A stretch of 21,419 nt of DNA, from positions 1 through 21,419 of the forward strand of contig MGSU01000015.1 of assembly GCA_001799195.1 (NCBI GenBank), written 5' to 3'. The DNA is from Deltaproteobacteria bacterium RIFOXYA12_FULL_61_11. Its GTDB lineage: Bacteria; Bdellovibrionota_F; JAHFAK01; YA12-FULL-61-11. A program made the position numbers and the translations under genes. Shown here piece after piece: positions 2,391 through 19,539 of this stretch (its first letter is position 1; each line of letters starts with the position of its first letter). The notes under the pieces were generated by a model that saw only the letters and a list, made by a program, of their open reading frames with translations, made no database searches and was not told the DNA's origin.

Positions 2391-2393
2391 TAG

Positions 2394-2548
2394 TAGCTTT
2401 TAGCTGTTAGCGGTTAGCTTTTAGCCAGGGGGAAGAGAAGCTATTAGCTGTTAGCTGTTAGCTGGGAGGAGAACAATGAAAACAATGTCATGAACAAGGT
2501 GGCAACCTGTCCGGCTAACAGCCAAAGGCTAACCGCTAACAGCTAGTA
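2394..2548. repeat. Heptameric inverted-repeat structure 1 (sheath-tube gap)
   Basis: Runs of 7-nt units of the form TTAGCNN occupy 2394-2428 and about 2440-2464, and the complementary form GCTAACN occupies 2513-2546. An 18-bp perfect inverted repeat is present: TAGCTGTTAGCGGTTAGC at 2401-2418 and its reverse complement at 2528-2545, with a loop of about 109 nt. The loop contains GGGAGGAG followed by an ATG at 2476 that opens only a 5-codon ORF (MKTMS). The tube gene's own ribosome site lies just after the right arm. The same architecture recurs at 8521-8635 and 14507-14597. Confidence 0.85.
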
Positions 2549-2561
2549 ACGGAGTGAGCAC

Positions 2562-3060: not shown

Positions 3061-3921
3061 TTACTTCACTGGGATTGCACCAACGGAGAGAAGGTAGAGG
3101 ATGACGAAGATGGTTGCGTCCGCGAAGAAGTGGGTAACCACCGGTGCCAGCATTCCTCCAGAACGAGAACGGATGAGGCCAATTGCGAAGCCGTACAGCG
3201 CGGCCATGGCCGCCCCAGTCAAGCCGCGCGGAAAGCCCCCATAATGAATCACGCCAAAAAGAATCGCCTGAACGATGTTGACGACCCACGTCCGTGATAA
3301 GACGCTTTCGAGGCCGGCCCAGAGAATGCCCTTGAGTATGAACTCCTCCCAGATCGCATTGAAGACCGAGAACGTAAGACCGGCTGCGAGCAACACGAGC
3401 AGACCACCAGGAGGGATCATATGCACGAGATCCGAAAGGTCCGGACGGAGCAGCACGACCCAGCCCAGTAGCGCACACGAGCTCAGAACAATCGTTGGGA
3501 CCATCCAACCCAGCGTGGCTTTGGTGAGCCGGCCGCGCATGAGCCACCGAGTGCTTGGTCGAGAACGCGGCCACACTCCGTACAGTGCGAGATAGCCAGC
3601 GAGCGGCAGGACGAAAGTCAGTGGCCAAGGGAGGCATGCTGCAATGGCCAAATAGAACAGCGGCCAGAACAGTGAATGCAGCCACAGATCGCGAACGTTT
3701 CGGTAGAGATAGACCTCAGCAACCACCAAGGGGAGCAGAGGTGCCCAGCGCCACAGGGTAGCGGTGAGGAAGAATGCCACGAAAGGCGTGATGGCAACGA
3801 AGAGGAACAGCAGCCTTCCGAAGGGAGAGGGGTAAACCGCTGTCGCTATCCCTGGGCCCTGTGGCATCGCAGCTGTCCGTGTCGAATCGGAGGACGTTGC
3901 CAATGTTGAGTCAATGCTCAT
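3061..3921 (-). CDS. CPBP-family intramembrane glutamic protease (CAAX protease-like)
   Basis: A polytopic membrane protein of 286 aa, with hydrophobic segments at about 36-56, 60-70, 84-115, 139-158, 172-187, 213-225 and 257-280. The CPBP (Abi/CAAX) motifs are visible: E192-E193 in WEEFILK, FGVIH (222-226) and HFFAD (264-268). The usual EExxxR arginine is a lysine here (K197). Family members are putative membrane proteases, some linked to bacteriocin self-immunity. The start could instead be M19 (3867), since operator-like repeats overlap the first codon at 3921. It lies opposite to all neighbouring tail genes and diverges from a TetR-type gene, so it looks like acquired cargo and not a tail component. 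Confidence 0.85.
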
Positions 3922-3945
3922 GTCGTGATGTTGAGCAAATGCTCA
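3906..3945. promoter_or_regulatory. Tandem operator-like repeats between the CPBP and TetR genes
   Basis: Two 15-bp copies, TTGAGTCAATGCTCA (3906-3920) and TTGAGCAAATGCTCA (3931-3945), differ at two positions and are 25 bp apart. The second is a near-perfect palindrome (TGAGCA-AA-TGCTCA). They lie in the divergent control region. A weak - strand promoter can be proposed (-35 TTGACG at 3956-3951, 17-nt spacer, -10 CAACAT at 3933-3928), and the second copy would sit in its spacer. This is the expected position for repression by the adjacent TetR-type protein. The sites are seen; the binding is inferred. Confidence 0.55.
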
Positions 3946-3968
3946 GTTTGCGTCAAGCTCACGATGCC

Positions 3969-4584
3969 ATGAACCAGTGGCAACCCGCCACCCGCAAGCC
4001 GGTCCAACGCCGGGCGATGCTCCGTCGCGAGTCGATCCTGGATGCGACTGCGCGGGTTCTCGATCGCGAAGGATACGATGGATTGACAACCAACGCTGTC
4101 GATATGGAAGCGGGGACCGCCTTTGGCTCGGTCTATCAGTACTTTCGGGGCCGCGAGGCATTGCTCGAAGGGTTACTCGAAAGACGTGGTCGCCGACTAA
4201 GCGAGATGGTCGAAGCTGCGGTCGCAACAGGCGATGTCGATCTCCTTACCGCCGCCGACGACGTCGTTGACGCGTTCGCACGGGTTTGGCGGGAGGAACC
4301 TGGATACAGGGCTGCATGGTCGGCCAAGCAGCTCGACGGTCTACTCTCTCGTACCGGGGGCCGAGTGGGGTCGCGCCTTCACTGAACTTGTCAGCGAATT
4401 ACTGTCGAGATCATTTCCCACAATGCAAGCATCACGCGCCACGCTTGTGGCAAATACTGCGGTCTACCTCGTCAGTGGCCTCCTTCTGGCCGCGACGTGC
4501 GGCCCGCGAAGGGCGGAGAAGGCCTTGATTGCGGAGACGAAGGTCGCACTGCGCGCCTACCTCAAAGGGCGATTGGCAGTGTGA
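3969..4584 (+). pseudogene. TetR/AcrR-family regulator, frameshifted
   Basis: The first part (frame of 3969) encodes a TetR N-terminus: RKPVQRRAMLRRESILDATARVLDREGYDGLTTNAVDMEAGTAFGSVYQYFRGREALLEGLL, with a clear helix-turn-helix and the YQYF signature. That frame stops at 4385. The matching C-terminal half continues in the next frame (AEWGRAFTELVSELLSRSF...ALRAYLKGRLAV) to a TGA at 4582-4584. Skipping one base in the G5 run at 4356-4360 joins them as ...LSRTGAEWGRAFTELV and gives about 204 aa, the usual TetR length. It is either a true one-base insertion or a sequencing error. Other in-frame starts exist at 3903 and 3939; 3969 best matches family N-termini. It probably regulates the divergent CPBP gene. 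Confidence 0.75.
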
Positions 4585-4791
4585 TACCGCTTGCGGTCTG
4601 TCGACGCTTTGTATCGCTGGGCACAGCGTGCTCAAGGCTGAGGTACGTGAACGGGTAGTCACTCGCTCTTCCCCTGTCCCCGCTATGCCCCCCTCATGCT
4701 TTCCCCTCCTGGAAAACCCATCTCTCAAGGGCGGAGGAGCAAGCGAGGTCCCAAGTGATGTACCTTTTCCCCACCTTCCAAGAATTCCCTG

Positions 4792-4821
4792 TCCCTTTCC
4801 TCCCGCCTCTCCCCCTTTGCC
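4792..4821 (+). promoter_or_regulatory. Conserved pyrimidine-rich leader box, copy A (before tail chaperone)
   Basis: This 30-nt segment begins TCCCTTT and ends CCCCTTTGCC, with CC at 11-12 and CCT at 15-17. The same bases at the same spacing occur at 12961-12990 and 17582-17611, and 22 of 30 positions are identical in all three. It contains almost no G on this strand. A TTAGGA lies 5 nt after it, and the chaperone ATG is 32 nt downstream. A more diverged relative of the wider leader (CCTGTCCC ... GGAAAACCC) lies at about 4673-4719. The function is unknown: possible translational leader, Rho-entry-like (rut) element or regulator site. Confidence 0.7.
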
Positions 4822-4853
4822 TCTATTAGGAAATCCCTCTCGCGAGGCCCTCC

Positions 4854-5594
4854 ATGTCCACCATCACCTGCCCCTCGGGGTTGAGCGGTACGCTTCGCGG
4901 CCTCAAAGCCAAGGAAGAACGCATTCTGGCCGACCACAAGCTGGCCAAGACCGGCGGCCAGATCGACCAGCTTCTCGGCGCGTGTTGGGAAGCAACGCTC
5001 GACCCCGGTCCCTATGATTTCGATAAACTCCTCGACTGGAGCAAAGTGCTCCAGGGCGATCGCTTCTTCGCCCTGCTCCAGCTTCGCATACTCTCTTATG
5101 GTCCCGAGTATGCTTTTTCGGTCCCTTGCGAGCACCGGGGCTGCCGCGCCCGGATCGAGTGGGAACTCGATCTTCGGGACCTGCCGATCAAACCCTTGTC
5201 CGACACGAGCCGCCAATCCTTTCTTGCCGGTAATCGCTTCGAGACGGTGCTGCCCGAGGCCGGCCGCAGCGTCACCTTCCGGCTGCTCACCGGGGGCGAC
5301 GAACGGCGTTTGACCACCCTGCGCAAGAACTCCGGCGAACGGCCGATCACCACCCTGCTCGGCTTCCGCATCGACAGCATCGATGGGGTTGAGCCGCGCG
5401 ACAAACCACAATTTTTCGAGAATCTCGGCATGGCCGACGTGACCTATCTCTTGAGCGAGTTCGACCGGGTGGACTGCGGGGTGGAAACCGAGCTCGAGGT
5501 CGAGTGCCCCGAGTGCTACGGCCTCACCAGGATCGAGCTCCCTTTCGACAAAAACTTCTTCCTGCCGACGAGGAAGAGCTCTTCCCCCCGGTAG
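4854..5594 (+). CDS. Tail assembly chaperone / T4-baseplate (gp26-like) family protein
   Basis: The 246-aa product sits between the tube and tape-measure genes, the position of tail assembly chaperones. The sequence resembles the T4_baseplate (gp26-like) family found in contractile tails. Two Cys pairs are visible, CEHRGC (92-97) and CPEC (218-221), and could form a zinc ribbon. The start is supported by GAGG (4844-4847) 6 nt upstream. The C-terminal tail after residue 234 (FFLPTRKSSSPR) is basic and low-complexity, while the -1 frame there reads LLPADEEELFPPVDLEHW, which looks like genuine protein. A -1 frameshift at C_AAA_AAC (5549-5555) would give a 309-aa fusion with the following ORF, as in lambda G/GT. 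The family call is good; the frameshift is inferred. Confidence 0.8.
   Translation: MSTITCPSGLSGTLRGLKAKEERILADHKLAKTGGQIDQLLGACWEATLDPGPYDFDKLLDWSKVLQGDRFFALLQLRILSYGPEYAFSVPCEHRGCRARIEWELDLRDLPIKPLSDTSRQSFLAGNRFETVLPEAGRSVTFRLLTGGDERRLTTLRKNSGERPITTLLGFRIDSIDGVEPRDKPQFFENLGMADVTYLLSEFDRVDCGVETELEVECPECYGLTRIELPFDKNFFLPTRKSSSPR
5549..5555 (+). other. Candidate -1 programmed frameshift site
   Basis: The zero-frame codons are GAC AAA AAC, so the heptamer is C_AAA_AAC. It is one base off the canonical A_AAA_AAC; the A-site tRNA can re-pair fully at its first two bases after slipping. Shifting here joins 234 chaperone residues to 75 residues ending at 5782. A second possible slip point is the C6 run at 5584-5589 just before the zero-frame TAG. 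Tail chaperone genes upstream of tape measures commonly use -1 frameshifting. Confidence 0.45.
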
Positions 5595-5617
5595 ACCTCG
5601 AGCACTGGAGGGAAGCG

Positions 5618-5782
5618 ATGTTCCAGCTCTGCTGGCACCAGCATGGCGGCTCGGGTCTGGCGATCACCTATGCTGAGGCACTGGAGCTTCCCCTGCAGGA
5701 CTTTTCGTGGCTGATCGAGCGCATCGGCACCCAGCGCTCGCGGGAAGCCAGGGAACTTGCCAAGGCCGGGAGGACGCGCTGA
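5618..5782 (+). CDS. Small tail protein or frameshift extension of the chaperone (DUF6760-like)
   Basis: This is 54 aa if it starts independently at the ATG at 5618, which has GGAGGG (5607-5612) 5 nt upstream. The sequence [51 protein letters not shown] resembles the short helical protein often encoded between the gp26-like gene and the tape measure in contractile-tail loci (DUF6760-like, from memory). The frame is open upstream through 5555, and its translation there (DEEELFPPVDLEHWREA) is protein-like, so the product may be made both as a fusion through a -1 frameshift and alone. It lies 3 nt before the tape-measure start. Confidence 0.65.
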
Positions 5783-5785
5783 GCC

Positions 5786-8524
5786 ATGCTGAACCTCGGT
5801 CTCGGTTTTCTGTTCACCGCCCGCGATCTGGCCTCGTCCAAGCTGACGCAGCTCGAGCAGCGCTTTCAGAGTCTCGACGCGCGGGTTACCGGCGGCACCG
5901 AGAGCATGACGAGCTCCTTTCGTCAGCTCGGGCTTGGTCTGGCCACCTTCACCTCGGGAGCAATCCTGGTCGGCGGCGCCTTGAGTATGGCCAATGCCGC
6001 GGGGCGCTTCGAGCAGGGGATCAGTGCGATCGGCTCGGTCACCCGCGCCGGAACCAAGGAATTGAACTTGCTGCGCAATGCCGCCATCGACGCGGGTATC
6101 GCCACCCAGTTTTCTCCGGACGAGGCGGTCGAGGGCCTGCTTTCCCTGGCCACCGCGGGACAAACCGCCCTCCAGTCGACAAAGACCCTGATCCCGGTGC
6201 TCGACCTGGCCGCCGGTTCGCTCGGCCAGCTCGGCGTGGCACAGGCCGCCGAGGCTGTGGTCGGCACGCTCAACGCCTACGGCCTCGCCGCGGACCAGTC
6301 TGCCGGGGTCACCGACAAGCTCTTGCGCATCACCCAGCTTACCAATTTCATGACCCGCGACTTCGAGGCCGGGCTGGCCAAGGCCGCGGCCACCGGCTCG
6401 GTTTTCGGCCAGAGTCTTGACGACGTATTGATCGCCATGGGCCTTTTGCGCAATCGCAACATCGACGCCTCGTCCTCGGCCACCGCGTTTCGCGAGGCGG
6501 TACGCCGGGTCGGAGCGGAAAGTCGGGCCCAGAACGCCCTGCTCGGCGTCGGCATCGATATTTTTGACCGCTCGAGCGGCCGGATGCGTTCGATCATCGA
6601 CATCATCGGCGACGTCGCCACGGCCACCCGCAACATGTCGGAAGCCGAACGCAACCGCCGGGTGGTCACGGCCTTCGGCGCGCGAGGTCTGCTCGCCTTC
6701 AACGCCGTGCTCAACGCCTCGTTCACCACCTTGCGCGACGGTTCCGAGGTCACCTTGCGGGGAGCCGAGGCTATTGCCGCCATGCGCCAGGAGCTGGGCG
6801 AGGCGGCAGGTACGGCCCAGGGGTTTCGGGAAAAACTGCTCGACACCTTTGCCGGTCAGAAGACCTTGCTCCAGGGAACCTTGCAGACCTATGCGGTGGT
6901 GCTCGGCGAACCCTTCGCCCAGGTCTTCAAACCCATCGTCCGAACCGTGGTCGAGTCCCTCAATGCCCTGCTGCACACGGTGCTCTCCATTCCGGCGCCG
7001 CTCAAACGGCTGCTTGCCGGTCTGGTGGTCACCGCGGGGAGTTTTCTCATGGTGGTCGGCGGAGCCATTGCAGGAAAAGCCTCGCTGCTTCTCCTCTCGC
7101 TTGGCCTCAAGGCCCTGGGCCTCAGCCTCGGCGGCCTCGTCGCCACCATCCTCCCGGCCGTGCTGATCCTCATGGCCCTGGGCACGGTCATTTCCGGCGT
7201 AACCCTGGCCATACAACACAATGTGGGAAACCTGGGCGACGTGGTGAAAACGCTCGGCACTCGGCTGTCGCTCTTCTTCGGCGGCTTGAAACAGCTCATC
7301 GAGCAGGGAGGTTTTTCCGGAGCGGTGCGTGAGGAGTTGAACAAAAACCTTGGAATAAAAGCCTTTCTCATCCGGATCTACCAACTCGGCGCCCGCTTCG
7401 GTTCGAGCTGGCAAGGCCTGACCGCAGGGTTTGTTTCCTCCCTCGATAAAGCCCGGCCGATCTTCACGGCCCTTGGCCAGGCCCTTCTGGACCTTGTTGC
7501 CGGTTTCTCCTCGCTGGCGGGAGGTTTTGCAAAGAGCGGCGCAGCGCTGCCCTCGAGCGCTTTTCTCGGTTTCGGCCAACTCCTCGGCACCCTGCTCGGC
7601 ACGGTCGTGCGTTGGTGTACCACCCTGTTGACCGTGGCCCTGCGGGTGGCCGTCGGAGTACAAAGCGGCTTCGGAGCCCTTCGTTCCTTTCTTGGCCCAG
7701 TCCTGACAAGCCTCGGCAGAGCCTTGACTGGCCTGTTCAACGCATGGAACCAACTCACCACGGCCACCATCACTTCCGATGAGGCCACCAGCACGACCTT
7801 GGCCGGTTGGCAGGTTTTGGGACAAGCGTTCGGCCTGCTCGCCGGGGGGGCTTTGTTGGTCTTGCTCGATACCTTGACCGCCGTGGTCGATACCTTGAAC
7901 ATCTTGCTGTCTCTGGTCGATGCGGTCGCCACGGCTTTTGGCGCCTTGGGTACCTGGATCGGCGAGAGTGCGGCAAAAATCTTTCTTTGGTTTGAAAACC
8001 TGCCCGAGCTCGTTTCCTCGACGCTTGGCCTGCTGAACCCGCTGGTGGCCTTTTTCACGAAACAGCTCGGGGCTTTGTACGACCTTGTCCGATCCCTTGC
8101 CTCGGGGCTGAGCACCCTGCTCGACCCCCTCGTGGAACGCTTCCGCTCGCTCGGTCTGACCCTGCGGGCAGCGTTGGGCAACGTCCTCCAGTGGCTCCAG
8201 AATCTCTTGCAAAAAATTCCGGAAACCTTGTTGCCCGAGACTCTGATCCGCTTCAAACACCTCCCTCTCGAGCAACCTGCTGTCACGCAGGTGGCGCCGC
8301 AACCTCACCCCAGAGACAACAGCCTGGTTCCAGCAGTTGCCGAGACGACCACCCGCAGCCGGGATTTTGAAAGAATTTTCCAATCCCTTGCTCAACCGCA
8401 GAAGAAGGAATCGCAATCGCTCATGGTCAATGTCCAGGTCGATGGCGAAACCATAGCCCGTGCCGTACACCACGCAGACCAGGCCAATGCCGCCAGGGCC
8501 TTTCTGCCTGTGCCGGTGTATTAG
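5786..8524 (+). CDS. Phage tail tape measure protein
   Basis: The 912-aa product sets tail length and occupies the tube lumen before ejection. Residues about 72-290 ([32 protein letters not shown]...[21 protein letters not shown]...[27 protein letters not shown]) match the PhageMin_Tail / TIGR01760-type tape-measure core. A strongly hydrophobic region follows at about 400-480, then long helical repeats. By the usual rule of about 1.5 angstrom per residue, it would specify a tail near 135 nm (estimate). GGGAGG lies 12 nt before the start, and the preceding stop is 3 nt away. Its own stop (8522-8524) lies inside the left arm of repeat structure 2. Confidence 0.93.
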
Positions 8525-8635
8525 TTTTTAGTGATTAGTTTTCAGTTGTTAGCTGGAGAAACAAGGGTGGGAGCATGATGTTGCACGGCAATAAACATAG
8601 CACTAAAAACTAAAAACTAATGACTAACAACTACT
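8521..8635. repeat. Heptameric inverted-repeat structure 2 (after tape measure)
   Basis: The left arm (8521-8555) is made of 7-nt units of the form TTAGTNN, and the right arm (8601-8635) of ACTAANN units. Perfectly complementary blocks include TTAGTTTTTAGTG (8521-8533) with 8601-8613, and AGTTGTTAG (8544-8552) with 8624-8632. The loop carries GGGAG and ATG codons at 8575 and 8578. The resulting 12-codon ORF (8575-8613) ends with a TAA drawn from the right arm, 6 nt before the ATG of the next tail gene and in the same frame. That ATG is itself inside the repeat. Confidence 0.85.
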
Positions 8636-9093
8636 CCCCCCGTCCCCCGCGCTGCGTGCTCGTGAACGTCACGACCTCCGAGTCGATCGAGTGCCTGTTC
8701 AACCCGACCCAGCTCAACGAGAAAATCCAGGTCGTTTGGAACCGGCTGGTCGTGCCCGGCCTCTCGCACCAGGTGTTGCAGTACCAGAGCACCGCCAACC
8801 GCCAGCTTTCGGGAATCGAATTCTATCTCGACAAGTTTTTTGCCGCACAGTGCCCGAACCATCCCGACATCATGGGGTTTCAAACCTTTTTGCGAACCCT
8901 GACCGTATCCTCGGCAAACGCTCGGGACTTTTCACCCCCCCGGGTGCTCTTCGTCTGGCCGGGCGTGCTGTCATTCGACTGCGTGCTGATCGAGGTCGAG
9001 TTCCAGTACCGCCAGTTCGCACACGACGGCTCGGTGCTGGTCTACACCGCGACCTGCACGTTTGAAGAGCTGGTTGAGCTACCGAGGCAATGA
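8620..9093 (+). CDS. CIS_tube-type hub/tube initiator protein (Afp7/gp53-like N-terminal domain)
   Basis: The 157-aa product resembles the contractile-injection-system tube domain that normally precedes a LysM domain in Afp7/Pvc7-like proteins: [23 protein letters not shown], then [20 protein letters not shown]...[11 protein letters not shown] and [29 protein letters not shown]. Here the LysM part is a separate gene immediately downstream. It joins the tube to the baseplate hub. The start ATG is supplied by the right arm of the heptamer repeat, and no Shine-Dalgarno is visible, so translation may depend on re-initiation after the loop ORF. No good alternative start exists further in. Confidence 0.8.
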
Positions 9094-9094
9094 C

Positions 9095-9430
9095 ATGCAT
9101 GCCGCTTCCCGTTATCTGTTCTGCTCAGGGGTTCGCGATACCGAGGGGCGACTGTATCTCACCGAGCGCGAACCCTATGGTTTTCACGAACACCACGACA
9201 CCCGCATCCACACCGTGGTCTTGGGCGATACCCTGTGGAGCCTGGCCGGCCGCTATTTTGCGCCCCTGCCGCGGGCCTGCGGCTTCTGGTGGGTGCTGGC
9301 TGACTTTCAAAAAGATCCGATCATCGATCCGACCCTCGACCTCACCATAGGACGCCAGATGTTCATTCCTTCCCTGCGCGTGCTGACCGACGTGATCCTG
9401 GGCGAAGCAAGAAGACGGGAGGTTGGATGA
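9095..9430 (+). CDS. LysM-domain tail protein (P2 gpX / gp53-like)
   Basis: The 111-aa product carries a LysM-like fold at about residues 37-95: IHTVVLGDTLWSLAGRYF...FWWVLADFQ...DPTLDLTIGRQMFIPS, the pattern of peptidoglycan-binding or hub-clamping modules in contractile baseplates. The start at 9095 is chosen because GAGG (9084-9087) precedes it by 7 nt; an upstream TTG extension would overlap the previous gene. Its stop overlaps the hub start (ATGA at 9427). In many clusters it is fused to the CIS_tube domain; here it is split off. Confidence 0.82.
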   Translation: MHAASRYLFCSGVRDTEGRLYLTEREPYGFHEHHDTRIHTVVLGDTLWSLAGRYFAPLPRACGFWWVLADFQKDPIIDPTLDLTIGRQMFIPSLRVLTDVILGEARRREVG

Positions 9431-10629
9431 CGATCATCGATCGCAGGGCTCCGGGGGTGCGGATTAGCGTGCTGCCAAGCGAACGCTCCAGCGCTGGCGA
9501 ACCTCTCGATCTTCAGAACCGCATCCTCTCCTTCACCTACGAGGACAGCGAACAGAAAGCCGACCGGATGATCGTGCAGCTCGACAACCAGGACCTGTCG
9601 CTCTTCTCGCGAGCGGAGCTCATGGGTGGCGCCCTGCTCGAGGTCTCGTGGGGCTATCCCGGCGCCATGGCCCCGCCCCGGCGGGTTGTTATCAAGAAAT
9701 TTCGGGGTTTCACCACCCTCAACCTCGAGGGTCTGGCCCTTGCGGTGCTGCTTCGTCGCGAAGCCAAGACCCGGCAGTGGGAACACACCACCCGCTCCGA
9801 GGTGGTCCGCAGCATTGCCGCCGAATACGGCTACAGCGGCCCCTTTCTCGAGCTCGAGGACACGGCCGAGGTGTTGGACCTGCAGCAGACCGCCGAAAGC
9901 GATGCCCACTTCCTTCGGCGTCTGGCCGTCAAAGAGGGGTTTCTCTTCTACATCGACGACAGCGGCCTGCATTTCCACCCACGGCGACAGTACCAGGCCC
10001 CTCAGCATGTGTTCGTCTGGTACGCCGGTCAGGCCAAGGTCCTTTCGGTGAGCGTGGAGTCCGACCTTCTGCAGCGTGCTGGCAAGGTTGTGGTCAAAGG
10101 CCGAAACCCTTTGACCCGTACCACCATCGTCGCCTCGGCCTCCTCGGCCACAACGGCGCGCACCACGCTTGGCGAAACCCTCGAGGTGGTCGATCCCGAA
10201 ACCGGGAAAACCTCGCTGCAGCAACGCAATGCCACGGCGATCGTGCGCCCCAGCGCCGGTTCCCGAGAACAATCCATCCAACAAGAAGCCGACACGAGGT
10301 TTCGCACCGTCGAACGCACGACGATCAAGCTCTCGATGCAGGTCGTCGGCGATCCGACGCTCAGGGCCAAAAGCCTGGTCGAGGTGCGCGGCATCTCGCC
10401 GCTGCTCTCTGGCCTCTATTATGTCACCGAGGTCAAACACCAGATTTCTGGTGCGGGGTACGTGTGTGACCTGGCTCTCACCAGGGACGGTCTTGGAACG
10501 CAGCCGACCAGCAACGTCGCGCCCCAGGGGGGACAGCGTAACCGCAGCGTGCCGGTTGCCAGCCAAGTCCGGGAGGTCGAGATAGTCGATCCGGAAACCG
10601 GAACCACCAAGCTCGAGTACAGGAACTAG
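9427..10629 (+). CDS. Baseplate hub protein (P2 gpD / T4 gp27 / VgrG N-terminal-like)
   Basis: This 400-aa late-control-D-type protein forms the trimeric hub between tube and spike. Recognisable elements are [22 protein letters not shown] (33-54), a W-G-Y-P segment, [12 protein letters not shown] (125-136), the signature [34 protein letters not shown] (150-183), and a C-terminal domain ending with [27 protein letters not shown] (329-355). The motif [16 protein letters not shown] at 253-268 reappears as [16 protein letters not shown] at the extreme C-terminus (385-400). The start is supported by GGGAGG 4 nt upstream. The LysM gene lies before it and the spike after it. Confidence 0.9.
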
Positions 10630-10630
10630 C

Positions 10631-11209
10631 ATGCTCGACGATTCTTTGGAAATCGCCCGTCACACCTCGCCTTTCTTCGGTTTGTACGTGGGCCACGTCA
10701 CCCACAGGAACGATCCGGAAACCCTCGGCCGCGTGCGGGTCTGCATTCCCGGTCTGGTCGAGCCGTACGGACCCTGGGCCTGGCCTCTCGGCACCGTGGG
10801 CGGTGGGTCCAAGAATTATGGCTTCTTCGCCGTGCCCGAGCTCGGGGCCGAGGTCGCGATCTTGTTCAACCAGGGCGACGTGGACGAGCCCTATTACCTC
10901 TGTACTCACTGGGGTAAGCCGGACGGCCAAAGCGAAGTCCCCGAAGAGGCCCAACAAGACCCTCCGGACAACCGGGTTTTCGCCACCGAAACCTTTCGGA
11001 TAGAATTTGACGAAAGCCAGGGCAATCGCAAGCTCAAGCTGACCAACCGCAAGACTGGCGATTTCCTGCTCTTCGACGCTGAAGAGAATACCATCACGTT
11101 GCAGGGTACCACCGCCATCACCATCAAAGCCGTGGGAGCGATAAGCCTGGAGGCCGCCCAGGTGACGATCGCTGGACGGGTCGTTCGCCCGGTGGCTGAA
11201 CCGATATGA
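10631..11209 (+). CDS. Baseplate spike protein (gpV / gp5 OB-fold family)
   Basis: The 192-aa product has the OB-fold of the phage baseplate V / gp5 family: [76 protein letters not shown]. It is followed by a short beta-helix-like C-terminus ([61 protein letters not shown]), as in VgrG/Afp8 spikes. It forms the membrane-piercing tip capped onto the hub. It starts 1 nt after the hub stop, with AGGA upstream. No lysozyme domain is present. Confidence 0.9.
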
Positions 11210-11215
11210 AAGAGG

Positions 11216-11605
11216 TTAGGTATGAGCAGCGATACGGCGCAACATCCCGACAACCTCAGCTTTGCTGGTTCGTCCTTCAGCAACTGAAATGGTCAAGTCA
11301 TAGAGTTGTTGGGAATTATGTTCCATGACAATGCCGTTGAGCTCGAGGAAAACGAGGGCTGCGAGCAAACCTGTCCGTTTGTTGCCATCGACAAAGGGAT
11401 GATTGCACACCAGATGGAAGAGGTAGGCGGCTGCTTGTTCAAACAGATCGTCATGGACCAGGTTTCCGCTAAAGGTCGCTTGTGGCTGAGCTACGGCAGA
11501 CTCGAGCAATCCACGATCACGCAACCCCGCAGCGCCACCAAAGCGGGAAAGCTGCATTGCGTGAAGCTCGAGGACATCGTCGACTGTGAGAAACTCGGGG
11601 TTCAT
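11216..11605 (-). CDS. doc: Doc-type (Fic family) toxin of a toxin-antitoxin pair
   Basis: The 129-aa death-on-curing toxin carries the signature HPFVDGNKRT at residues 69-78, matching the Doc HxFx[D/N]xNKR active site. The rest (FLTVDDVLELHAMQLSRFGGAAGLRDRGLLESAVAQPQATF, then FEQAAAYLFHLVCNHPF) is also typical. Characterised Doc proteins phosphorylate EF-Tu and stop translation. The gene is on the - strand, follows the antitoxin with an ATGA overlap, and fills the gap between the spike and the next + strand tail gene, ending 6 nt from the spike stop. Confidence 0.92.
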   Translation of the reverse strand: MNPEFLTVDDVLELHAMQLSRFGGAAGLRDRGLLESAVAQPQATFSGNLVHDDLFEQAAAYLFHLVCNHPFVDGNKRTGLLAALVFLELNGIVMEHNSQQLYDLTISVAEGRTSKAEVVGMLRRIAAHT

Positions 11606-11826
11606 TCAGCCAGTTTACGAAAGGTGTTGTCGTGTTGGTCCATGAGACGACCGGCAGCTTGCTGTACCCGTGCCCAATGCACTTCTCGGACAGGCCGAAC
11701 GATCAGTGCCTCCCCATCTGTGCTGATCTCGAGTTTGGTGTTTTTGTCGATGTTCAACAGGTCGAGGATGGGACGCTCGATGATGAGCCCCAGGCTATTC
11801 CCGATGGTGGTGAGGGTTTTGACCAT
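11602..11826 (-). CDS. AbrB/MazE-type antitoxin
   Basis: The 74-aa product has an N-terminal swapped-hairpin AbrB/MazE DNA-binding domain (MVKTLTTIGNSLGLIIERPILDLLNIDKNTKLEISTDGEALIVRPV, residues 1-46). The short C-terminus (WARVQQAAGRLMDQHDNTFRKLAE) would be the toxin-wrapping part. A Phd-type antitoxin would be the textbook Doc partner; here it is AbrB-like. The start is the ATG at 11826, where the AbrB fold begins; the longer open frame further upstream is antisense to a tail gene. No strong Shine-Dalgarno is seen. A promoter and a palindromic operator lie immediately upstream. Confidence 0.88.
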   Translation of the reverse strand: MVKTLTTIGNSLGLIIERPILDLLNIDKNTKLEISTDGEALIVRPVREVHWARVQQAAGRLMDQHDNTFRKLAE

Positions 11827-11847
11827 GATTGGTTGTCCATATAAACA

Positions 11848-11889
11848 TTGTTCTAACGATAGTATAACAAACCATCGACTTTCCAGCAA
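11848..11889 (-). promoter_or_regulatory. Toxin-antitoxin promoter with palindromic operator
   Basis: On the - strand, -35 TTGCTG (11889-11884), a 17-nt spacer and -10 TATACT (11866-11861) form a good sigma70 promoter, with a TGT extension before the -10. Overlapping the -10 is an imperfect 23-bp palindrome, TTGTTNTA-N7-TANAACAA (11848-11870), suitable for autorepression by the AbrB-type antitoxin. The -35 overlaps the Shine-Dalgarno (AAGGAG) of the divergent + strand gene at 11899. Confidence 0.7.
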
Positions 11890-11898
11890 GGAGAAGGC

Positions 11899-12573
11899 AT
11901 GACTCTGCCGATCTGCTTGGAAATCCCCACACTTCCCGAGGCCTTCAACCTCACCTTGCCCGGCGGAGTACAGCTCGAGCACCTCAATCTCATGGAGGTC
12001 ATTCAGCCTGCGCTGACGCCGCTGATGCCGCTCTTTGACCTGGTCGACACCGTGGTCGCGGTGTTCAACTGTATCAAGGCCATTCCCGACACCCTCGGCC
12101 CGCCGCCGGACCCCTCGGCACTCATCGCCTGTCTGCCCGACCTCAGCGAAAAAATCGCTAAACTTTTGAAACTCATTCCCCAGCTCTCGCTGCCCCTGAC
12201 CATCCTCGGCCTGATCGACTTGGTGCTCGATACCTTGATCCGTGCACGCAGCGAGCTGCTGCACCTGCAACAACAACTGGTCCAGCTCACCGGCGCGATC
12301 GACCGGGCCACGGAGCTCGAGGATGCCGGACTTATGGCCATCGCCCAATGCGTGCAGGCCAACGTGGCCCAAGAAGCGGCGAACGTGGGCAAGAGCCTGG
12401 CCGCGCTGGGCAAGCTCATCGGCATGCTCAATCTTTTTATGCAAATGATCGGCGGACCCGAGGTTCCCGAGCTCACCAACCTGGCCGGTCGCCCGCTCGA
12501 TCAGGTGATCGAGCCGCTCGACGCGATCGTACAACAACTTCGGACCGTGCGTTCCTTGATCCCGGTGCCGTGA
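11899..12573 (+). CDS. Unknown tail-cluster protein, Leu/Pro-rich and helical
   Basis: The 224-aa product is not recognised. It is rich in Leu, Pro and Ile, with two hydrophobic amphipathic segments (about 32-60 and 92-114), a coiled-coil-like stretch (RARSELLHLQQQLVQLTGAIDRATELED, about 115-142) and a further helical region (155-187). Four Cys are scattered (6, 58, 78, 151). AAGGAG lies 6 nt before the ATG. It sits between the spike and the gp25 wedge gene; the next gene starts 2 nt after it. A baseplate adaptor or a chaperone of the hub are possibilities from position only. Confidence 0.75.
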   Translation: MTLPICLEIPTLPEAFNLTLPGGVQLEHLNLMEVIQPALTPLMPLFDLVDTVVAVFNCIKAIPDTLGPPPDPSALIACLPDLSEKIAKLLKLIPQLSLPLTILGLIDLVLDTLIRARSELLHLQQQLVQLTGAIDRATELEDAGLMAIAQCVQANVAQEAANVGKSLAALGKLIGMLNLFMQMIGGPEVPELTNLAGRPLDQVIEPLDAIVQQLRTVRSLIPVP

Positions 12574-12574
12574 G

Positions 12575-12949
12575 GTGACTTTGGACAATCGATCGATCAT
12601 CCTTCCTTTCCAACGCGACAAGAAGCGGGACTTCGCCTCCGGGGTGGGGGAGGACTTGATCGCTTCCAAGGTTCGCCAGGCGCTCTTGACCGAGGGCGCG
12701 ACGCCAAAGTCCTCGGGGGAATTACCCTGGCGGACCGAGTTCGGCTCCGGCCTGCAGCTCCTCCGTCACCTGCGCAATGAGGCCGCGCTTGCCGACCTCG
12801 CCAAAATTCATGTCCGCGACTGTCTGCAGCGCTGGGTGCCCGAGGTGGAGCTGCTTGAGGTCATTACAACCCGCGACGGCGAGACCCTGCAGCTCAAGGT
12901 GAGGTTTAGAGCGGCGGACGAGGCCACGGTGGTAAACCTACAACTCTGA
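12575..12949 (+). CDS. Baseplate wedge protein, gp25/GPW family
   Basis: The 124-aa product (GTG start) is of the T4 gp25 / P2 gpW family, a wedge subunit that anchors the sheath to the baseplate. Matching features are [35 protein letters not shown], the [18 protein letters not shown] signature (GE-P--PEFGS-L in the family; about residues 49-66) and a C-terminal beta region ([23 protein letters not shown]). A TTG at 12581 placed 5 nt after GAGG is an equally plausible start. It lies before the baseplate J gene, as usual. Confidence 0.9.
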
Positions 12950-12960
12950 AAATTTCATCG

Positions 12961-12990
12961 TCCCTTTCAACCGGCCTTCCCCCCTTTGCC
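12961..12990 (+). promoter_or_regulatory. Conserved pyrimidine-rich leader box, copy B (before baseplate J)
   Basis: Second copy of the 30-nt box: TCCCTTT at its start, CCCCTTTGCC at its end, CC and CCT in the same internal positions as at 4792 and 17582. AGGAGG (12996-13001) follows 5 nt later, and the baseplate J ATG is 20 nt downstream of the box. The gap between the gp25 stop and the box is only 11 nt. Confidence 0.7.
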
Positions 12991-13010
12991 TCTCTAGGAG
13001 GTACCTCTTC

Positions 13011-14506
<1,496 letters not shown>

Positions 14507-14510
<4 letters not shown>

Positions 14511-14597
14511 CTTTTAGCTTTTAGCTTTTAGCGAGGAGGAATAATGCCCAGAAACCACACTCTTCATTCTTGGCTAACCGCTAATCGCTAACCGCTC
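14507..14597. repeat. Heptameric inverted-repeat structure 3 (after baseplate J)
   Basis: The left arm (14507-14532) is four units of TTAGCTT type; the right arm (14571-14597) is four units of CGCTAAN type. The arms are only partly complementary. The loop contains GAGGAGG followed by the ATG at 14544, opening a 15-residue ORF (14544-14591). Its TAA comes from the right arm and lies 6 nt upstream of, and in frame with, the ATG of the next gene (14598). The plan is the same as at 8521-8635. Confidence 0.85.
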
Positions 14598-15146
14598 ATG
14601 ACTCTTCTTAACCCGAGCTTCGAGGACGCGGGTGCAGCGCCGGGGCAAGCTGCACACTGGACCCTTATCACCTCGGTCGCCGCGGAACGGCTTGCCGGCT
14701 TCGGCCCCGACCCGCACCGCGCCTGGGAGGATTTTGAACGCTGGTCCGAGCTTGTCCTGTCGCTCGGCCAGGGTGACGTGGCGCTCGCCTTCTTCGACCC
14801 GCTTGCCGAGGGCTTTGAGGACTTTGAAGATGGCTGGGACAACGACCTCTACTTGATCGAGCTGCCAAGCGGACACGTCATCGCCGCGCCTTTCGGCGGC
14901 GGCGCGGTCGAGGACCTGGAGGAGGGCTGGGACAACGTGCCCTACGCGCGAGCCTGGGAGGAGGTCGCGGGCGTGACCGGCATCTTCGACGGCGAGCCGG
15001 TGGAGGACTTCAACGAACAGTGGCACGGCAACGAGTCCTTCCTCTGGGAGTGGGAGATGGCCGTTGGCGTCATCGCGGCGTTCGACGGCGCCACGCAGAA
15101 CTTCGAAGATTTCGAGAACGGCTGGACCGCAGCCACAACGATCTGA
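14598..15146 (+). CDS. Acidic tail-periphery protein with about 31-residue repeats
   Basis: The 182-aa, very acidic and Trp-rich product is not recognised as a named family. The N-terminus (LNPSFEDAG...AAHWTLITSVAAERLAGFG) resembles the edge of a carbohydrate-binding-like beta-sandwich. Then the motif E-D-[FL]-x-x-x-W repeats: EDFERW (44-49), EDFEDGW (74-80), EDLEEGW (105-111), EDFNEQW (136-142), EDFENGW (170-176), spaced 30-34 residues apart, most units followed by aromatic residues and a short beta strand ending FDG or FDP. The start is directly after the heptamer repeat with no Shine-Dalgarno. It lies between baseplate J and tail protein I, so it is probably a baseplate-edge or fiber-attachment part. 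Confidence 0.75.
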   Translation: MTLLNPSFEDAGAAPGQAAHWTLITSVAAERLAGFGPDPHRAWEDFERWSELVLSLGQGDVALAFFDPLAEGFEDFEDGWDNDLYLIELPSGHVIAAPFGGGAVEDLEEGWDNVPYARAWEEVAGVTGIFDGEPVEDFNEQWHGNESFLWEWEMAVGVIAAFDGATQNFEDFENGWTAATTI

Positions 15147-15153
15147 GGAGTAT

Positions 15154-15846
15154 ATGGCAAGCACTGACTGGACCTATCTCAACAACGGACTCGACCTCGC
15201 CACCGTGGACCGCGGCGTCACCGCTGGCATCGCGCGACCACCGGGCGGCGGCAATTTCCTCTTCGCCTTCAACTCCCTTGCTGCTGTGCAGGGCGCGGTC
15301 GCGCTCTTCGCCAACCTCGTCGACTTCGCCCCCATGGCCAAGGGAGGCTCGATCCGGGGCTGTATCCAACGCGGTCCGAGCGGCGGTCCAACCGGCTTCT
15401 CGCCGTTCCTGTACCTCTGTTGCCAGGGTACTTCGGTCAACGATTATGCCTACCTGCTCGGCCTCTCCGACGAAGACCCCCATCGGATCATCTTGCGCAA
15501 GGGGCTGGTGCAGAGCGGCCTGACGACCCAAAGCCCCGGCACCCTCCTGGCATCGAGCGAAAGCTTTCTGCTCGGCACCTGGCTGCACCTGCGACTCGAC
15601 GTGATCGTCAATCTCAATGGCGACGTGGTGCTCGAGGCGTGGTGGAACAATCTCGACCTCCACCCGCTCGGCACCGCGCCCTCCTGGCAATCGATCGCGG
15701 GGATGCCCCAGTTCCTCGACGACCATCTCGGCATCAACAGCGGCTCACAGCCGCTCACCTCAGGGCGCGGCGGCTTCGGCATCATGGTCAAGGACGCCAC
15801 GCGCCGCTGCTTCTTCGATCATATCGAGCTGCTGAGGCAGATCTGA
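15154..15846 (+). CDS. Putative lectin-like (LamG/concanavalin-fold) tail protein
   Basis: The 230-aa product (MASTDWTYLNNGLDLATVDRGVTAGIARPPGGG...) starts at 15154, with GAGGAG 4 nt upstream. The alternation of beta strands with W and G, and segments such as ESFLLGTWLHLRLDVIVNLNGDVVLEAWWNNLD (about 137-169) and GRGGFGIMVKDATRRCFFDHIELLRQ (about 204-229), are typical of a jelly-roll domain measuring a coated surface. I infer a carbohydrate-binding or receptor role. The stop overlaps the next ATG (TGATG). It is one of three small genes inserted between J and I. Confidence 0.6.
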   Translation: MASTDWTYLNNGLDLATVDRGVTAGIARPPGGGNFLFAFNSLAAVQGAVALFANLVDFAPMAKGGSIRGCIQRGPSGGPTGFSPFLYLCCQGTSVNDYAYLLGLSDEDPHRIILRKGLVQSGLTTQSPGTLLASSESFLLGTWLHLRLDVIVNLNGDVVLEAWWNNLDLHPLGTAPSWQSIAGMPQFLDDHLGINSGSQPLTSGRGGFGIMVKDATRRCFFDHIELLRQI

Positions 15847-16241
15847 TGGAGCTCGACGCCTTCACGAGCCGCCTCGGCCTGGGCCAGGGACGGATTGTTT
15901 CCGCGAACGCGACCCCGGGCTCCGGCGATCATGTGTTCGTGCTCGGTGAGGACGATCCTGGCAGGTTCTTCGAACTCGCTCCGGGTGACCACGCGGAGGT
16001 CGTGCAGGACACCGAGCTCACCGACACAACCCTCGTCCGCGCCCACCTCCGACTGCACGTGCCCTCAAGCCTCCCGGGGATACTTGTTTGGGAAGTGTCG
16101 ATCATCGTGGACGGGGGGAAAGCGGCCCGCGCCACCTGCCGCGCCGGGCGGAAGCGTCTGCTGACCGACCTCGCCGCCAACGTCTCCAAGCTCACCGGCC
16201 TGCATAGGGTCGGCGTACGCCTCGAGCTCCTGGAGGGGTAA
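15846..16241 (+). CDS. Small beta-rich tail protein, unknown
   Basis: The 131-aa product (MELDAFTSRLGLGQGRIVSANATPGSGDHVFVLGEDDPGRFFELAPGDHAEVVQDTELTDTTLVRAHLRLHVP...) is not recognised. It is predicted beta-rich (alternating hydrophobic strands, DTTLVRAHLRLHVPSSLPGILVWEVSIIVDGG), consistent with a small sandwich domain. Its start overlaps the previous stop and its stop abuts the next start, so it is tightly coupled to the lectin-like gene and tail protein I. It probably forms part of the same peripheral structure. Confidence 0.65.
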   Translation: MELDAFTSRLGLGQGRIVSANATPGSGDHVFVLGEDDPGRFFELAPGDHAEVVQDTELTDTTLVRAHLRLHVPSSLPGILVWEVSIIVDGGKAARATCRAGRKRLLTDLAANVSKLTGLHRVGVRLELLEG

Positions 16242-17567
16242 ATGCCCACGCTCGAGCTACCTGCCCTCTACGCCGACAACATTATAACCATCGTTGCGGA
16301 CGAGCGTCTCATACTCCTCAACCGCGACCCAGGGCCGGACGAAACAGGCGTACCGCTCGACTGGCCGATCGCCCTCGAAGTGCTCGACACCGGTCCGGAC
16401 GGCGTAGACCGCGCTGCCACCCAGGTCTTCGTGGACGGCGTGCTCGCCTTCGACGGTGGGGTGGATCCCGAGCTGCAACCCGGCTATGACGGCCCTCGGG
16501 CCGAAGTCGTGCTCACCTCGGACACCCTGCGCCTCGTTCTCGATCCTATCGTGCCTTGGACGAGCGAGGCCAAGGTCGAGGTCCGGGTAATCTCCAAAAC
16601 TCTCGGCGGGGTCCACGCGCTCGACCAGATTTTTTCCTTCTTCGCCGAAGACCGCACCGGACCCAGGGTGCTGGCCGCACAAGCCAACAGTCCTACTACA
16701 GTCCTGATTGGCTTCGACGAAGAGGTCGCCGTCACAGAAAATTTCGCCTGCACCTTCACCGCCCTCGACCTTCCCGCGGTTCCCCTGCTTCCCCTTGCCG
16801 CCGAGGCCCAGAAAACTCTCGTCCGCCTCGAGCTCGCTACCGACATGACTCCCGACGTGCGTTATCGGCTCACGGTGTCCGGCGTTACTGATCTGCACGG
16901 CAATACTGTCCTGCCGCTCTCTGCCACGGCCATCTTTTCCGGCTTCCGCCCGCCCCGGCCAAGAGAACGGAACTTCGACCTCTGGTCGATGTTTCCCAAA
17001 CACCTCCGCCGAGACGACGCTACCGGCGATCTGAAAAAGTTTGCCGCGTGCCTCCAGGAAGTTGTACACTTGCTCCTCGTCGAGCTCGACCGCTTTCCAG
17101 ACCTCTACGATCTCGAACGCTCACCCGAGCCCTTTCTCGACGCCATCCTGACCGATCTTGCTGTTCCTTTTCCCTTCGAGCTCGACCTTCTTGAAAAACG
17201 CAGACTGGCCTCGGTGTTGGTCGAGATGTATTGCCAAAAGGGCACGGCCCTTGGTCTTCGCAACGCCGTCCGCTTCTTCCTCGGCCTCGAGGTGACCATT
17301 TCGTCATGTTCCCACACGCTCGTCCTGGGTGAAGCCGAACTGGACGACACCTTCGTGCTCGGCCCTTCCGACCGCTTTGCCCTCTATGCCTTCGAGGTAC
17401 AGGTCGATAGCCCCCTGTCCGCCACTCAACGCCGCCAGCTCGCGGCCATCATCGACTATCTCAGACCCGTCCATACACATGCCCTCCTGCGCGAACCCTT
17501 GCCGCCTCCGAGCTTTGTGGTCTGGGAACTCGGCGAAGGAGCGCTGGGGTCCATGCTGTTGCTCTGA
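16242..17567 (+). CDS. Tail protein I (TIGR02242-like) with N-terminal Ig-like domains
   Basis: The 441-aa product falls in two parts. Residues about 1-230 look like two bacterial Ig-like (Big_5/SbsA type) domains: [51 protein letters not shown] and [26 protein letters not shown]. Residues about 235-400 match the phage tail protein I domain: [66 protein letters not shown]...[34 protein letters not shown]. Protein I connects wedge and fiber. A GGAGGGG site precedes the start by a few nt. The fiber follows, as in P2. Confidence 0.85.
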
Positions 17568-17581
17568 CCTTTCTTTCGACG

Positions 17582-17611
17582 TCCCTTTTCACCAACCTTT
17601 TCCCCTTTGCC
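17582..17611 (+). promoter_or_regulatory. Conserved pyrimidine-rich leader box, copy C (before fiber)
   Basis: Third copy of the 30-nt box: TCCCTTT at the start, CCT at 15-17 and CCCCTTTGCC at the end. It is followed by AGAAGGA within 12 nt. The fiber ATG is 30 nt downstream and has its own GAGG (17630-17633) at 7 nt. The box lies in a 73-nt gap, one of the few gaps in this operon. Confidence 0.7.
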
Positions 17612-17640: not shown

Positions 17641-19539
17641 ATGGCCGACAGAGTGGATTATTATTTTCACCAAAAACTCACCGAGGCCGAGCTCGACCTC
17701 GGCTTCGAATTGTTGGAAAAGGCCGATCGCAACCTCGCCGCCGACCTTGGTCTCCTGGGCATCATCAGCGGCGCCGAGCCGACGCCCCACGCACCGGTTC
17801 CGGACCTGACCCTCGACCTGACCGCTCCGGCTCGGGCCTATGACCGGCTCGGCCAACGCATTTCTTTCGGCACTGGACAGACCGTGAACTGTGCCGTCGA
17901 CCTCGTCGGTATGCCCACCGAGGTCCTGACTGCGGGTAACGAACGCTGGCTCGGGCTGTTTTTGTGCTTTGACCGCAGCTTGTCCGATCCCCGTACCGAT
18001 GGCAATTCCCAACAAGTCTTCTTCCGCCGGGACGAAGCGTTCCAGCTCAAAGTCCGTCAAGCTCCGGAAGGCGCCCTCGGCGCCGCACCCAAGGTCGCGC
18101 TGCAGGACGGCGAACTTCTGCTCTGCGACGTGCTGCGCCGGTATGGCCAGACCCAGCTCCTTTCGGCCGACCTCGACCTCTCTCGCCGGCAGGTCTTTTT
18201 ATTCACCACCGCCGCCTCAATCGGCATCGTCAGCGAGCTGTGGAACCTTTTGCCAACCCTGGGCACGGTCCAAGACGCGCTCGATGCGGTCGATACCGAG
18301 CTTACGAACCATTTTGGCGGCACGGCCAGACATCACCCTGCCGCGGACCTCGACTACACCCCCCACGGCTTCATCGCCGCGGACACCGTGCAGACCGCCC
18401 TCGACGAGTTGGTAGACGGCCTTTCGTCCACCGCCGCTGGCAGCCCCGGTGCCTCCAAGGTAGGAGCCGATGCCGTGTCCGGCACGCCCCAGGCGCTACC
18501 GGCAGGTTCGGTAGATGGTCAGCTTTCCCAACTCCTCGGCTGGATCAACGGCCACCTCGGCGCCTCCAGCAATGCTCATCATGCCAGTGCCATCCGCACC
18601 GACGCACACAATTATCTCGGCACGACCACCGTGCAGGGTCAGTTTCAAGAACTGGTTCTCGACCTGCTCTCCCAGACCGCAGGAAGCGCCGGGGCCGTTC
18701 GGGTCGGCGCCTCGGCGGTGTCGGGTAACCCGACGGCCTTGACGGCGGGAACGGTCAGTGCCCAGCTTGCAACCTTGCTTTCCGCCCTCAATGGCCATGC
18801 CACTGCTGCCGACAACGCCCATCCTGCCGCCGCGGTTTCCTTTGCCGATAGCGGCGACCGCTTCAATGCCGTTGAGACTGAGCTAGCATTGATCGAGCTC
18901 ATGGCTATCCTCGAGCAAGGTCACTATCGCGCCAACCAGACCACCCCCGGCCAGCACAAGGCCATCGTCCAGCCCGTGCTCGGCACTGGCAAGGCCCTTG
19001 TCTGGGATTCCTTGGGCATCGGTTGGACAGGCACCCGTCTCAGAGTCCTCATTGATGACAGCTCGGTCTGGTTCACCCTCAACGCTTTTTGGAACGGCAC
19101 GGCCTGGCAACGCGATTATTCCACCTTCTACGCCGGAGGCTTTCGCTTCTCCCGCAACGAGTTCGAAATCCTGCACGATCACAACCTCGTCTCGACCTTC
19201 ACCGACTGGTCGCGGCGCTGGAAACTGCCCCTGAGTTCGAGCGTGAATTCAGCCTTTGAGCTCACCGGAGAAGTCCAGGAAGTCGGAAGAATCGGCTTTG
19301 TTGGCACCAATACCGACAACGCCACCAGAAGCATGACCCTGGGTGGGTGTGTGACGTTCAGGAATCGCTTCCCCGCTCTGCCATCCTCGATCACCCTGAC
19401 CCGCATATCGTCATCAAACTGGAACCAAACCCCAGCACCTCTGGATGTCAGCAGGGACGGCTTTTTCTATCAAGCCACTGCGCAGGTTGCAGCAACTACC
19501 TCGGTGTTCTGGAACGGCGAGTACCATGCCATTGCGTAA
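17641..19539 (+). CDS. Tail fiber-like protein with 81-residue tandem repeats
   Basis: The 632-aa product starts at 17641 because of GAGG 7 nt upstream; the longer open frame would run into tail protein I. Residues 1-200 (MADRVDYYFHQKLTEAELDLGFELLEKADRNLAADLG...) form a baseplate-attachment region. Two tandem repeats follow at about 249-329 and 330-410: TVQ--L-EL--L...GSxGA-xVGA-AVSG-P-AL-AG-V--QL--LL---NGH----NAH-A-A. A partial copy precedes them at 209-248 (TVQDALDAV...HHPAADLDYTPHGFIAAD). These repeats resemble trimeric fiber shafts. Residues 411-632 are a beta-rich, aromatic C-terminal domain (WFTLNAFWNG, FYAGGFRFSRNEFE, FWNGEYHAIA), the probable receptor-binding tip. Confidence 0.82.
   Translation: MADRVDYYFHQKLTEAELDLGFELLEKADRNLAADLGLLGIISGAEPTPHAPVPDLTLDLTAPARAYDRLGQRISFGTGQTVNCAVDLVGMPTEVLTAGNERWLGLFLCFDRSLSDPRTDGNSQQVFFRRDEAFQLKVRQAPEGALGAAPKVALQDGELLLCDVLRRYGQTQLLSADLDLSRRQVFLFTTAASIGIVSELWNLLPTLGTVQDALDAVDTELTNHFGGTARHHPAADLDYTPHGFIAADTVQTALDELVDGLSSTAAGSPGASKVGADAVSGTPQALPAGSVDGQLSQLLGWINGHLGASSNAHHASAIRTDAHNYLGTTTVQGQFQELVLDLLSQTAGSAGAVRVGASAVSGNPTALTAGTVSAQLATLLSALNGHATAADNAHPAAAVSFADSGDRFNAVETELALIELMAILEQGHYRANQTTPGQHKAIVQPVLGTGKALVWDSLGIGWTGTRLRVLIDDSSVWFTLNAFWNGTAWQRDYSTFYAGGFRFSRNEFEILHDHNLVSTFTDWSRRWKLPLSSSVNSAFELTGEVQEVGRIGFVGTNTDNATRSMTLGGCVTFRNRFPALPSSITLTRISSSNWNQTPAPLDVSRDGFFYQATAQVAATTSVFWNGEYHAIA

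What the first reader, a model, noticed from the sequence alone, without database searches (positions are those of the whole stretch)
4792..17611. One 30-nt pyrimidine-rich leader box recurs before three different tail genes
At 4792-4821, 12961-12990 and 17582-17611 the same box (TCCCTTT ... CC..CCT ... CCCCTTTGCC) occurs with exactly identical internal spacing, and 22 of 30 positions match in all three. Each copy lies in a short gap 20-32 nt before a start codon, and the downstream genes (chaperone, baseplate J, fiber) are unrelated, so gene duplication does not explain it. The strand is almost free of G. This could be a shared post-transcriptional signal (S1 or Rho binding, a translational regulator, an sRNA target) coordinating three blocks of the tail operon.
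Basis: seen in the sequence. Interest (0 to 1): 0.75.

Follow-up and report, generated by a model that had tools for sequence, protein, structure and literature searches.

The report
Prophage promoter with its own sigma factor
The repeated box is most likely a two-part promoter that a virus-like element in myxobacteria places before each block of its particle genes, and the element appears to carry its own sigma factor (the protein that tells RNA polymerase where to start) to read it.

Summary
Three boxes match at exactly 22 of 30 columns, and shuffles predict none. The whole host genome (4.64 Mb) holds seven copies. All lie on three contigs of one prophage-like element and point at structural or packaging genes. 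Relatives show that only the two ends are conserved: GTCCC-Y…(18-22 nt)…CTTTG-Y-C. The pyrimidine-rich middle is not.

In myxobacterial relatives the box sits at the same block starts: chaperone 12/13, baseplate J 28/39, fiber 16/25, portal 9/25. It precedes none of the orthologous starts of the 24 other genes that are box-free in every element. Cargo genes, often antisense, lie directly upstream of it, so each block needs its own transcription start.

Box-bearing elements encode a gene beside terS of unknown annotation (phrog_36246). Its predicted structure matches RNA polymerase sigma factors almost exclusively. Among 26 related viral records, 6 of 7 with this gene carry the box, and 0 of 19 without it do.

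Best reading: element-specific promoters read by an element-encoded sigma factor. It is not a post-transcriptional signal. Transcription start sites and sigma-DNA recognition are untested.

The parts
4791..4821 (+). Box 1 (promoter-like): GTCCCTTT (4791-4798) ... CTTTGCC (4815-4821), before the gene at 4854 (tail chaperone / hub-like, phrog_150)
   Evidence: same site boxed in 11 other loci with this gene
12960..12990 (+). Box 2: GTCCCTTT (12960-12967) ... CTTTGCC (12984-12990), before baseplate J at 13011
   Evidence: same site boxed in 27 other loci
17581..17611 (+). Box 3: GTCCCTTT (17581-17588) ... CTTTGCC (17605-17611), before the fiber gene at 17641
   Evidence: same site boxed in 15 other loci
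4854..5594 (+). First gene of block 1 (phrog_150, baseplate hub / chaperone-like); block runs through tape measure and hub genes
13011..14510 (+). First gene of block 2: baseplate wedge J-like
17641..19539 (+). First gene of block 3: tail fiber-like
   Evidence: phrog_14469, E 2.4e-5
12996..13001 (+). Shine-Dalgarno-like AGGAGG, 5 nt after the end of box 2; the predicted transcription start lies about here
   Evidence: sequence; most box sites with an SD have it 5-8 nt after the box
3061..3921 (-). Cargo gene on the opposite strand (Rce1-like CAAX protease) between the tube gene and box 1
   Evidence: comparable antisense cargo upstream of boxes in relatives

Best explanation
The box is a promoter of a prophage-like element of the Mx-alpha type found in Myxococcota. 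The 5' half (GTCCC plus 1-6 nt of element-specific flavour) acts as the -35 element and the 3' half (CTTTG[C/T]C) as the -10 element. Transcription then starts just before or at the Shine-Dalgarno sequence 5-8 nt further on, giving a very short leader. The promoter is read by host RNA polymerase carrying a sigma-70-family factor encoded by the element itself (phrog_36246 family, beside terS). One promoter heads each conserved block (terminase, portal, head protease, tail chaperone, baseplate J, fiber), so the blocks are switched on together although cargo islands, often antisense, are inserted directly upstream of the promoters. Shown: copy number, position, orientation, conservation, co-occurrence with the sigma-like gene, and a sigma-like predicted fold. 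Inferred: that it is a promoter, that this sigma reads it, and the start-site position.
For: Seven copies in the genome, all on element contigs and co-oriented with element genes. Same block boundaries boxed in Myxococcus, Corallococcus and viral contigs; 0 hits before the 24 genes that are box-free throughout. 6 boxes observed on G106:C494 against 0.015 expected. Antisense or variable cargo directly upstream. No sigma-70 consensus promoter at these gaps. Sigma-like gene in the window element, split across contigs C2 and C135 that share a 48-nt end, and in box-bearing relatives. 26 records: sigma+ 7 (6 boxed), sigma- 19 (0 boxed). Fold: rows shown against PDB are essentially all sigma factors, Z 8.8, 3.0 A over 110 residues; top viral hit is an annotated phage ECF sigma, probability 1.00. 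Box flavour is uniform within an element (non-core identity 0.73 within, 0.31 between). Precedent: phage 7-11 and phiEco32 (PMC4331800).
Against: No start-site, binding or expression data. The sigma gene is below Pfam's cut-off for Sigma70_r2 (E about 0.2), and Foldseek E-values are only 0.002-0.03. Spacers run from 18 to 22 nt between hexamers, long for a sigma promoter at the gpJ and terS/int sites of Myxococcus. Some MAG fragments with boxes (G103, G105) show no sigma gene, perhaps through incompleteness. The early operon on C2 has no recognisable box. Close elements share ancestry, so record counts are not independent events.
Confidence: 0.77

Rival explanations
1. The box is a promoter or activator site, but it is read by another factor: the second sigma-like gene found in Myxococcus elements (L282:8044-9018), a host ECF sigma, or a DNA-binding activator such as the HTH terS-like protein.
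For: A second sigma-like protein with a region-4 match (Pfam E 5e-5) heads the divergent early operon in Myxococcus elements. The terS-like protein has an HTH and in the window element both its copies are box-led.
Against: The second sigma is not found in the window genome. The terS-like gene is also present in box-free relatives. Host factors do not explain why the box is confined to element contigs or why its flavour differs between elements.
Confidence: 0.13
2. The box acts in the RNA as a leader element controlling translation (SD-masking hairpin, S1 or Rho site, sRNA target).
For: Near-constant 5-8 nt spacing from box end to SD; inverted repeats across the SD at several sites, such as GTCCTTCC-CGGA-GGAAGGAC before the Myxococcus chaperone gene. 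Mycobacteriophage start-associated sequences are a described precedent for short repeats at starts (PMC3203893).
Against: Fold z-scores are weak and structures differ from site to site (mean -1.2). The pyrimidine-rich, G-poor middle is not conserved. The gene upstream is often antisense and 16-60 nt away in places, leaving no room for a separate upstream promoter.
Confidence: 0.07
3. Generic repeat or coincidence, or a recombination joint that marks module boundaries without regulatory function.
For: Boxes lie exactly where cargo is inserted.
Against: Not found elsewhere in the host genome; boxes also stand at boundaries without cargo (gpJ and fiber in the window); strand-specific with fixed distance to the start codon; co-occurs with a sigma-like gene.
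Confidence: 0.03

Closest known systems
Promoters of phage-encoded ECF-type sigma factors of phiEco32 and phage 7-11 (PMC4331800)
   Same: A few highly conserved intergenic copies upstream of structural gene clusters, co-oriented, in a genome that encodes its own sigma factor
   Different: Those are short extended -10 motifs (TAATGTATA type) in lytic phages; here two GC-rich halves 18-22 nt apart, in an integrated element, one at every module start, with a sigma family unrecognised by sequence
Start-associated sequences (SAS/ESAS) of cluster K mycobacteriophages (PMC3203893)
   Same: Phage-specific asymmetric repeats just upstream of start codons of unrelated genes; consensus differs between subgroups; absent from the host
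   Different: SAS contains the ribosome-binding site; this box ends before the SD and sits at block starts rather than at many single genes
Mx alpha prophage of Myxococcus xanthus (PMC6070905)
   Same: Multi-copy large element in Myxococcus; the box-bearing element is present in several copies in M. xanthus AM003 and other Myxococcus genomes
   Different: Identity not established here: no annotated Mx alpha sequence was compared, and tail-less particles were reported for Mx alpha whereas this element has contractile-tail genes

Membership tests
Phage-encoded sigma factor with cognate promoters | Element-specific motif in several co-oriented intergenic gaps, absent from the rest of the host | tested here: met
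Phage-encoded sigma factor with cognate promoters | A sigma-70-family protein encoded by the same element | tested here: met
   Structure-based: the PDB rows shown are essentially all sigma factors, Z up to 8.8, 3.0 A over 110 residues. By sequence only weak Sigma70_r2 matches below cut-off
Phage-encoded sigma factor with cognate promoters | Motif and sigma gene occur together across relatives | tested here: met
   6 of 7 sigma+ records boxed, 0 of 19 sigma- records; the seventh has a variant CTCTG flavour
Phage-encoded sigma factor with cognate promoters | Two elements spaced like -35/-10, start site 6-8 nt downstream | tested here: inconclusive
   Spacer mostly 18-19 nt but 21-22 nt at two site classes; no start-site data
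Phage-encoded sigma factor with cognate promoters | Sigma directs transcription from the motif | not testable with these tools
   needs in vitro transcription or RNA-seq
Start-associated sequences | Repeat includes the Shine-Dalgarno sequence | tested here: not met
   SD lies 5-8 nt after the box at most sites
Rho or S1 pyrimidine-rich RNA site | Conserved C/U-rich, G-poor stretch | tested here: not met
   Middle is G-containing and unconserved in relatives
Mx alpha | Sequence identity with the mapped Mx alpha region of M. xanthus | not tested
   no annotated Mx alpha record in the collections used

The most novel reading that the evidence does not exclude
A previously undescribed sigma-70-family group (phrog_36246, listed as unknown function) and its promoter class control a whole family of myxobacterial phage-like elements, probably including Mx alpha. 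The promoter 'flavour' co-evolves with the sigma in each lineage, and each promoter insulates a conserved block from cargo islands dropped in just upstream.
Probability: 0.6. Interest if true: 0.68.

Novelty: new member of a known kind. Interest (0 to 1): 0.6.

Why it matters
It gives a concrete handle on how a widespread, multi-copy phage-like element of social bacteria is switched on: one gene to delete and one motif to mutate. It assigns a likely function to an unannotated protein family, and it explains how a modular element can accept cargo at many points while keeping its particle genes co-expressed. Several natural sigma/promoter pairs with different flavours would allow specificity to be tested directly.

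Tried and rejected
Rfam on the window: no match at gathering thresholds. Exact 30-nt box in viral contigs: none. Loose bipartite pattern in viral contigs: only single matches per contig, as chance predicts. Box in TerL relatives with two mismatches: none recognisable, because the 5' flavour differs, until the gpJ gaps were compared. RNA folding of 24 sites: weak and inconsistent. Sigma-70 consensus promoters and intrinsic terminators in the window: no more than in shuffles. Profile of the sigma family against PDB sequences: no sigma hit, only two weak mitochondrial ribosomal protein S16 matches.

Full report
Observation. 22 of 30 columns are identical, the gaps to the start codons are 32, 20 and 29 nt, and all are preceded by G. 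No match is expected in shuffled sequence, even with three mismatches.

Whole genome. The window is contig C15 of a 4.64 Mb, 342-contig genome. The 30-nt box occurs five times in it. Allowing a 13-18 nt middle between TCCCTTT and CTTTGCC gives seven occurrences, all on contigs C15, C110 and C135 and all on the coding strand of an element gene; reversed-pattern controls give at most one. C110 and C135 carry terminase, portal, MuF-like, head protease, capsid and connector genes. The seven copies precede two terS-like genes, the holin-portal block, the head-protease gene, the chaperone/hub gene, baseplate J and the fiber.

Relatives. TerL and baseplate J relatives came from viral contigs and from Myxococcus, Corallococcus, Citreicoccus and several MAGs. 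In the gap before baseplate J, myxobacterial relatives have GTCCCC...CTTTG(C/T)C followed by GGAGG. So the conserved parts are the two ends; the pyrimidine-rich middle seen in the window is not conserved. The match counts are 79 co-oriented with the locus orientation against 1. On a Myxococcaceae contig (G106:C494) there are six boxes against 0.015 expected from an order-2 Markov model. Five stand at portal, protease, chaperone, baseplate J and fiber, the same five boundaries as in the window's element. The 53-kb element of L020 has boxes at all five as well, plus one before its lysM gene.

Specificity. Orthologous gene starts were scanned in all loci. Upstream boxes: chaperone 12 of 13, baseplate J 28 of 39, fiber 16 of 25, portal 9 of 25. 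The terS-like and holin starts had a box only in the window's own element. For the other 24 genes (terL, MuF, capsid, sheath, tube, tape measure, hub and others) there were none. The protease start was covered only once by this method because its N-terminus is not conserved, and scored negative there; its boxes are documented.

Why a promoter. In many relatives the box is immediately downstream of variable cargo. The nearest upstream gene is often on the opposite strand, with its start only tens of bases away (for example 37 nt in L227, 46 nt in L223, 16 nt in L036). A block in that position cannot depend on read-through and has little room for a separate upstream promoter. No sigma-70 consensus promoter is found at these sites. 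RNA folding gives no consistent structure. The window's own box 1 lies downstream of an antisense cargo gene (3061-3921) and a TetR-like gene.

The sigma factor. The gene just upstream of terS is a member of phrog_36246, unknown function. In the window's element its two halves lie on C2 (L309:1-378, minus) and C135 (L007:1-501, plus). The two contig ends share 48 identical bases, so the break is an assembly artefact. Myxococcus homologs are about 268 aa, and a second full copy lies on contig C189 of the same MAG, next to its own terS, terL and portal with two GTCCCCG-type boxes. Pfam gives only sub-threshold Sigma70_r2 matches (E about 0.2). AlphaFold2 on the family alignment gave mean pLDDT 74. 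The named hits are sigma factors almost throughout, against PDB and against viral models, and the structural alignment to sigma-S region 2 has Z 8.8 with 3.0 A over 110 residues. Z values below about 13 for helical folds can be non-specific, so the uniformity of the hit list matters more than any single score.

Co-occurrence. Among 26 viral records with the same gene order, 7 have the sigma-like gene and 6 of these have boxes; 19 lack it and none has a box. The seventh, L021's record, has a variant (GTCCC...CTCTG) before portal, chaperone and an early gene. The L022 record (39 kb) has every orthologous block but neither sigma nor box. Records may be fragments and relatives are not independent, so this is strong but not proof.

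Flavours. The seven window boxes all begin GTCCCTTT; Myxococcus boxes begin GTCCCCG. At seven non-core positions, different sites of one element agree at 0.73 on average, while the same site in different elements agrees at 0.31. Sites within an element have therefore changed together, as expected if they follow one DNA-reading factor.

Known relatives of the idea. Phages phiEco32 and 7-11 encode ECF-type sigma factors whose promoters were found by aligning intergenic gaps (PMC4331800). Cluster K mycobacteriophages carry start-associated repeats, but those contain the SD itself (PMC3203893). The Myxococcus elements are multi-copy and resemble Mx alpha (PMC6070905), but that identity was not tested. 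No paper found in the open library describes this box or sigma; subscription papers were not searchable.

Limits. There is no transcription data. The assignment of this particular sigma to the box rests on co-occurrence and shared flavour. Spacers of 21-22 nt at two classes of Myxococcus sites are long. A second sigma-like gene exists in Myxococcus elements and could serve some promoters. The link between C15 and the other contigs is inferred from gene order and shared box flavour.

Noticed in passing
window 2390-2560, 8521-8640, 14510-14600; L006:7855-7990: Other gaps of the same element carry arrays of short repeats (TTAGCTGTTAGC / CTAACAGC) instead of the box.
   Followed up: no
window 5504-5782 overlapping 4854-5594: An overlapping reading frame between the chaperone-like gene and the tape measure, kept in Myxococcus elements, with a CCCCCC run near 5583; possibly a programmed frameshift as in other tail chaperones.
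   Followed up: no
window 3061-4584 and 11216-11844: Cargo inside the tail cluster: a CAAX-protease-like gene with a TetR-like gene, and a Doc-like toxin with an AbrB-like partner on the minus strand. The Rce1-like match was checked; the other names come from reading the sequence.
   Followed up: partly
L006:3861-7859: A 1332-aa open frame joining several DNA adenine methylase-like domains to a prohead protease.
   Followed up: partly
L282:8044-9018: A second sigma-like protein heads the divergent early operon in Myxococcus elements; not found in the window genome.
   Followed up: partly
L331 (G000:C189): The same MAG holds a second related element (own sigma, terS, terL, portal) with the GTCCCCG-type box; its higher third-position GC suggests another origin or a binning error.
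   Followed up: partly
L309 about 10880-11000: Tandem GATCCCATTGACC-like repeats next to a serine recombinase at the end of the element.
   Followed up: no
G100:C45:139643, G108:C304:30775: A conserved box-like sequence (GTCCCCATAA...GGGCTTTGTC) on Myxococcus contigs where no element gene was recognised.
   Followed up: no
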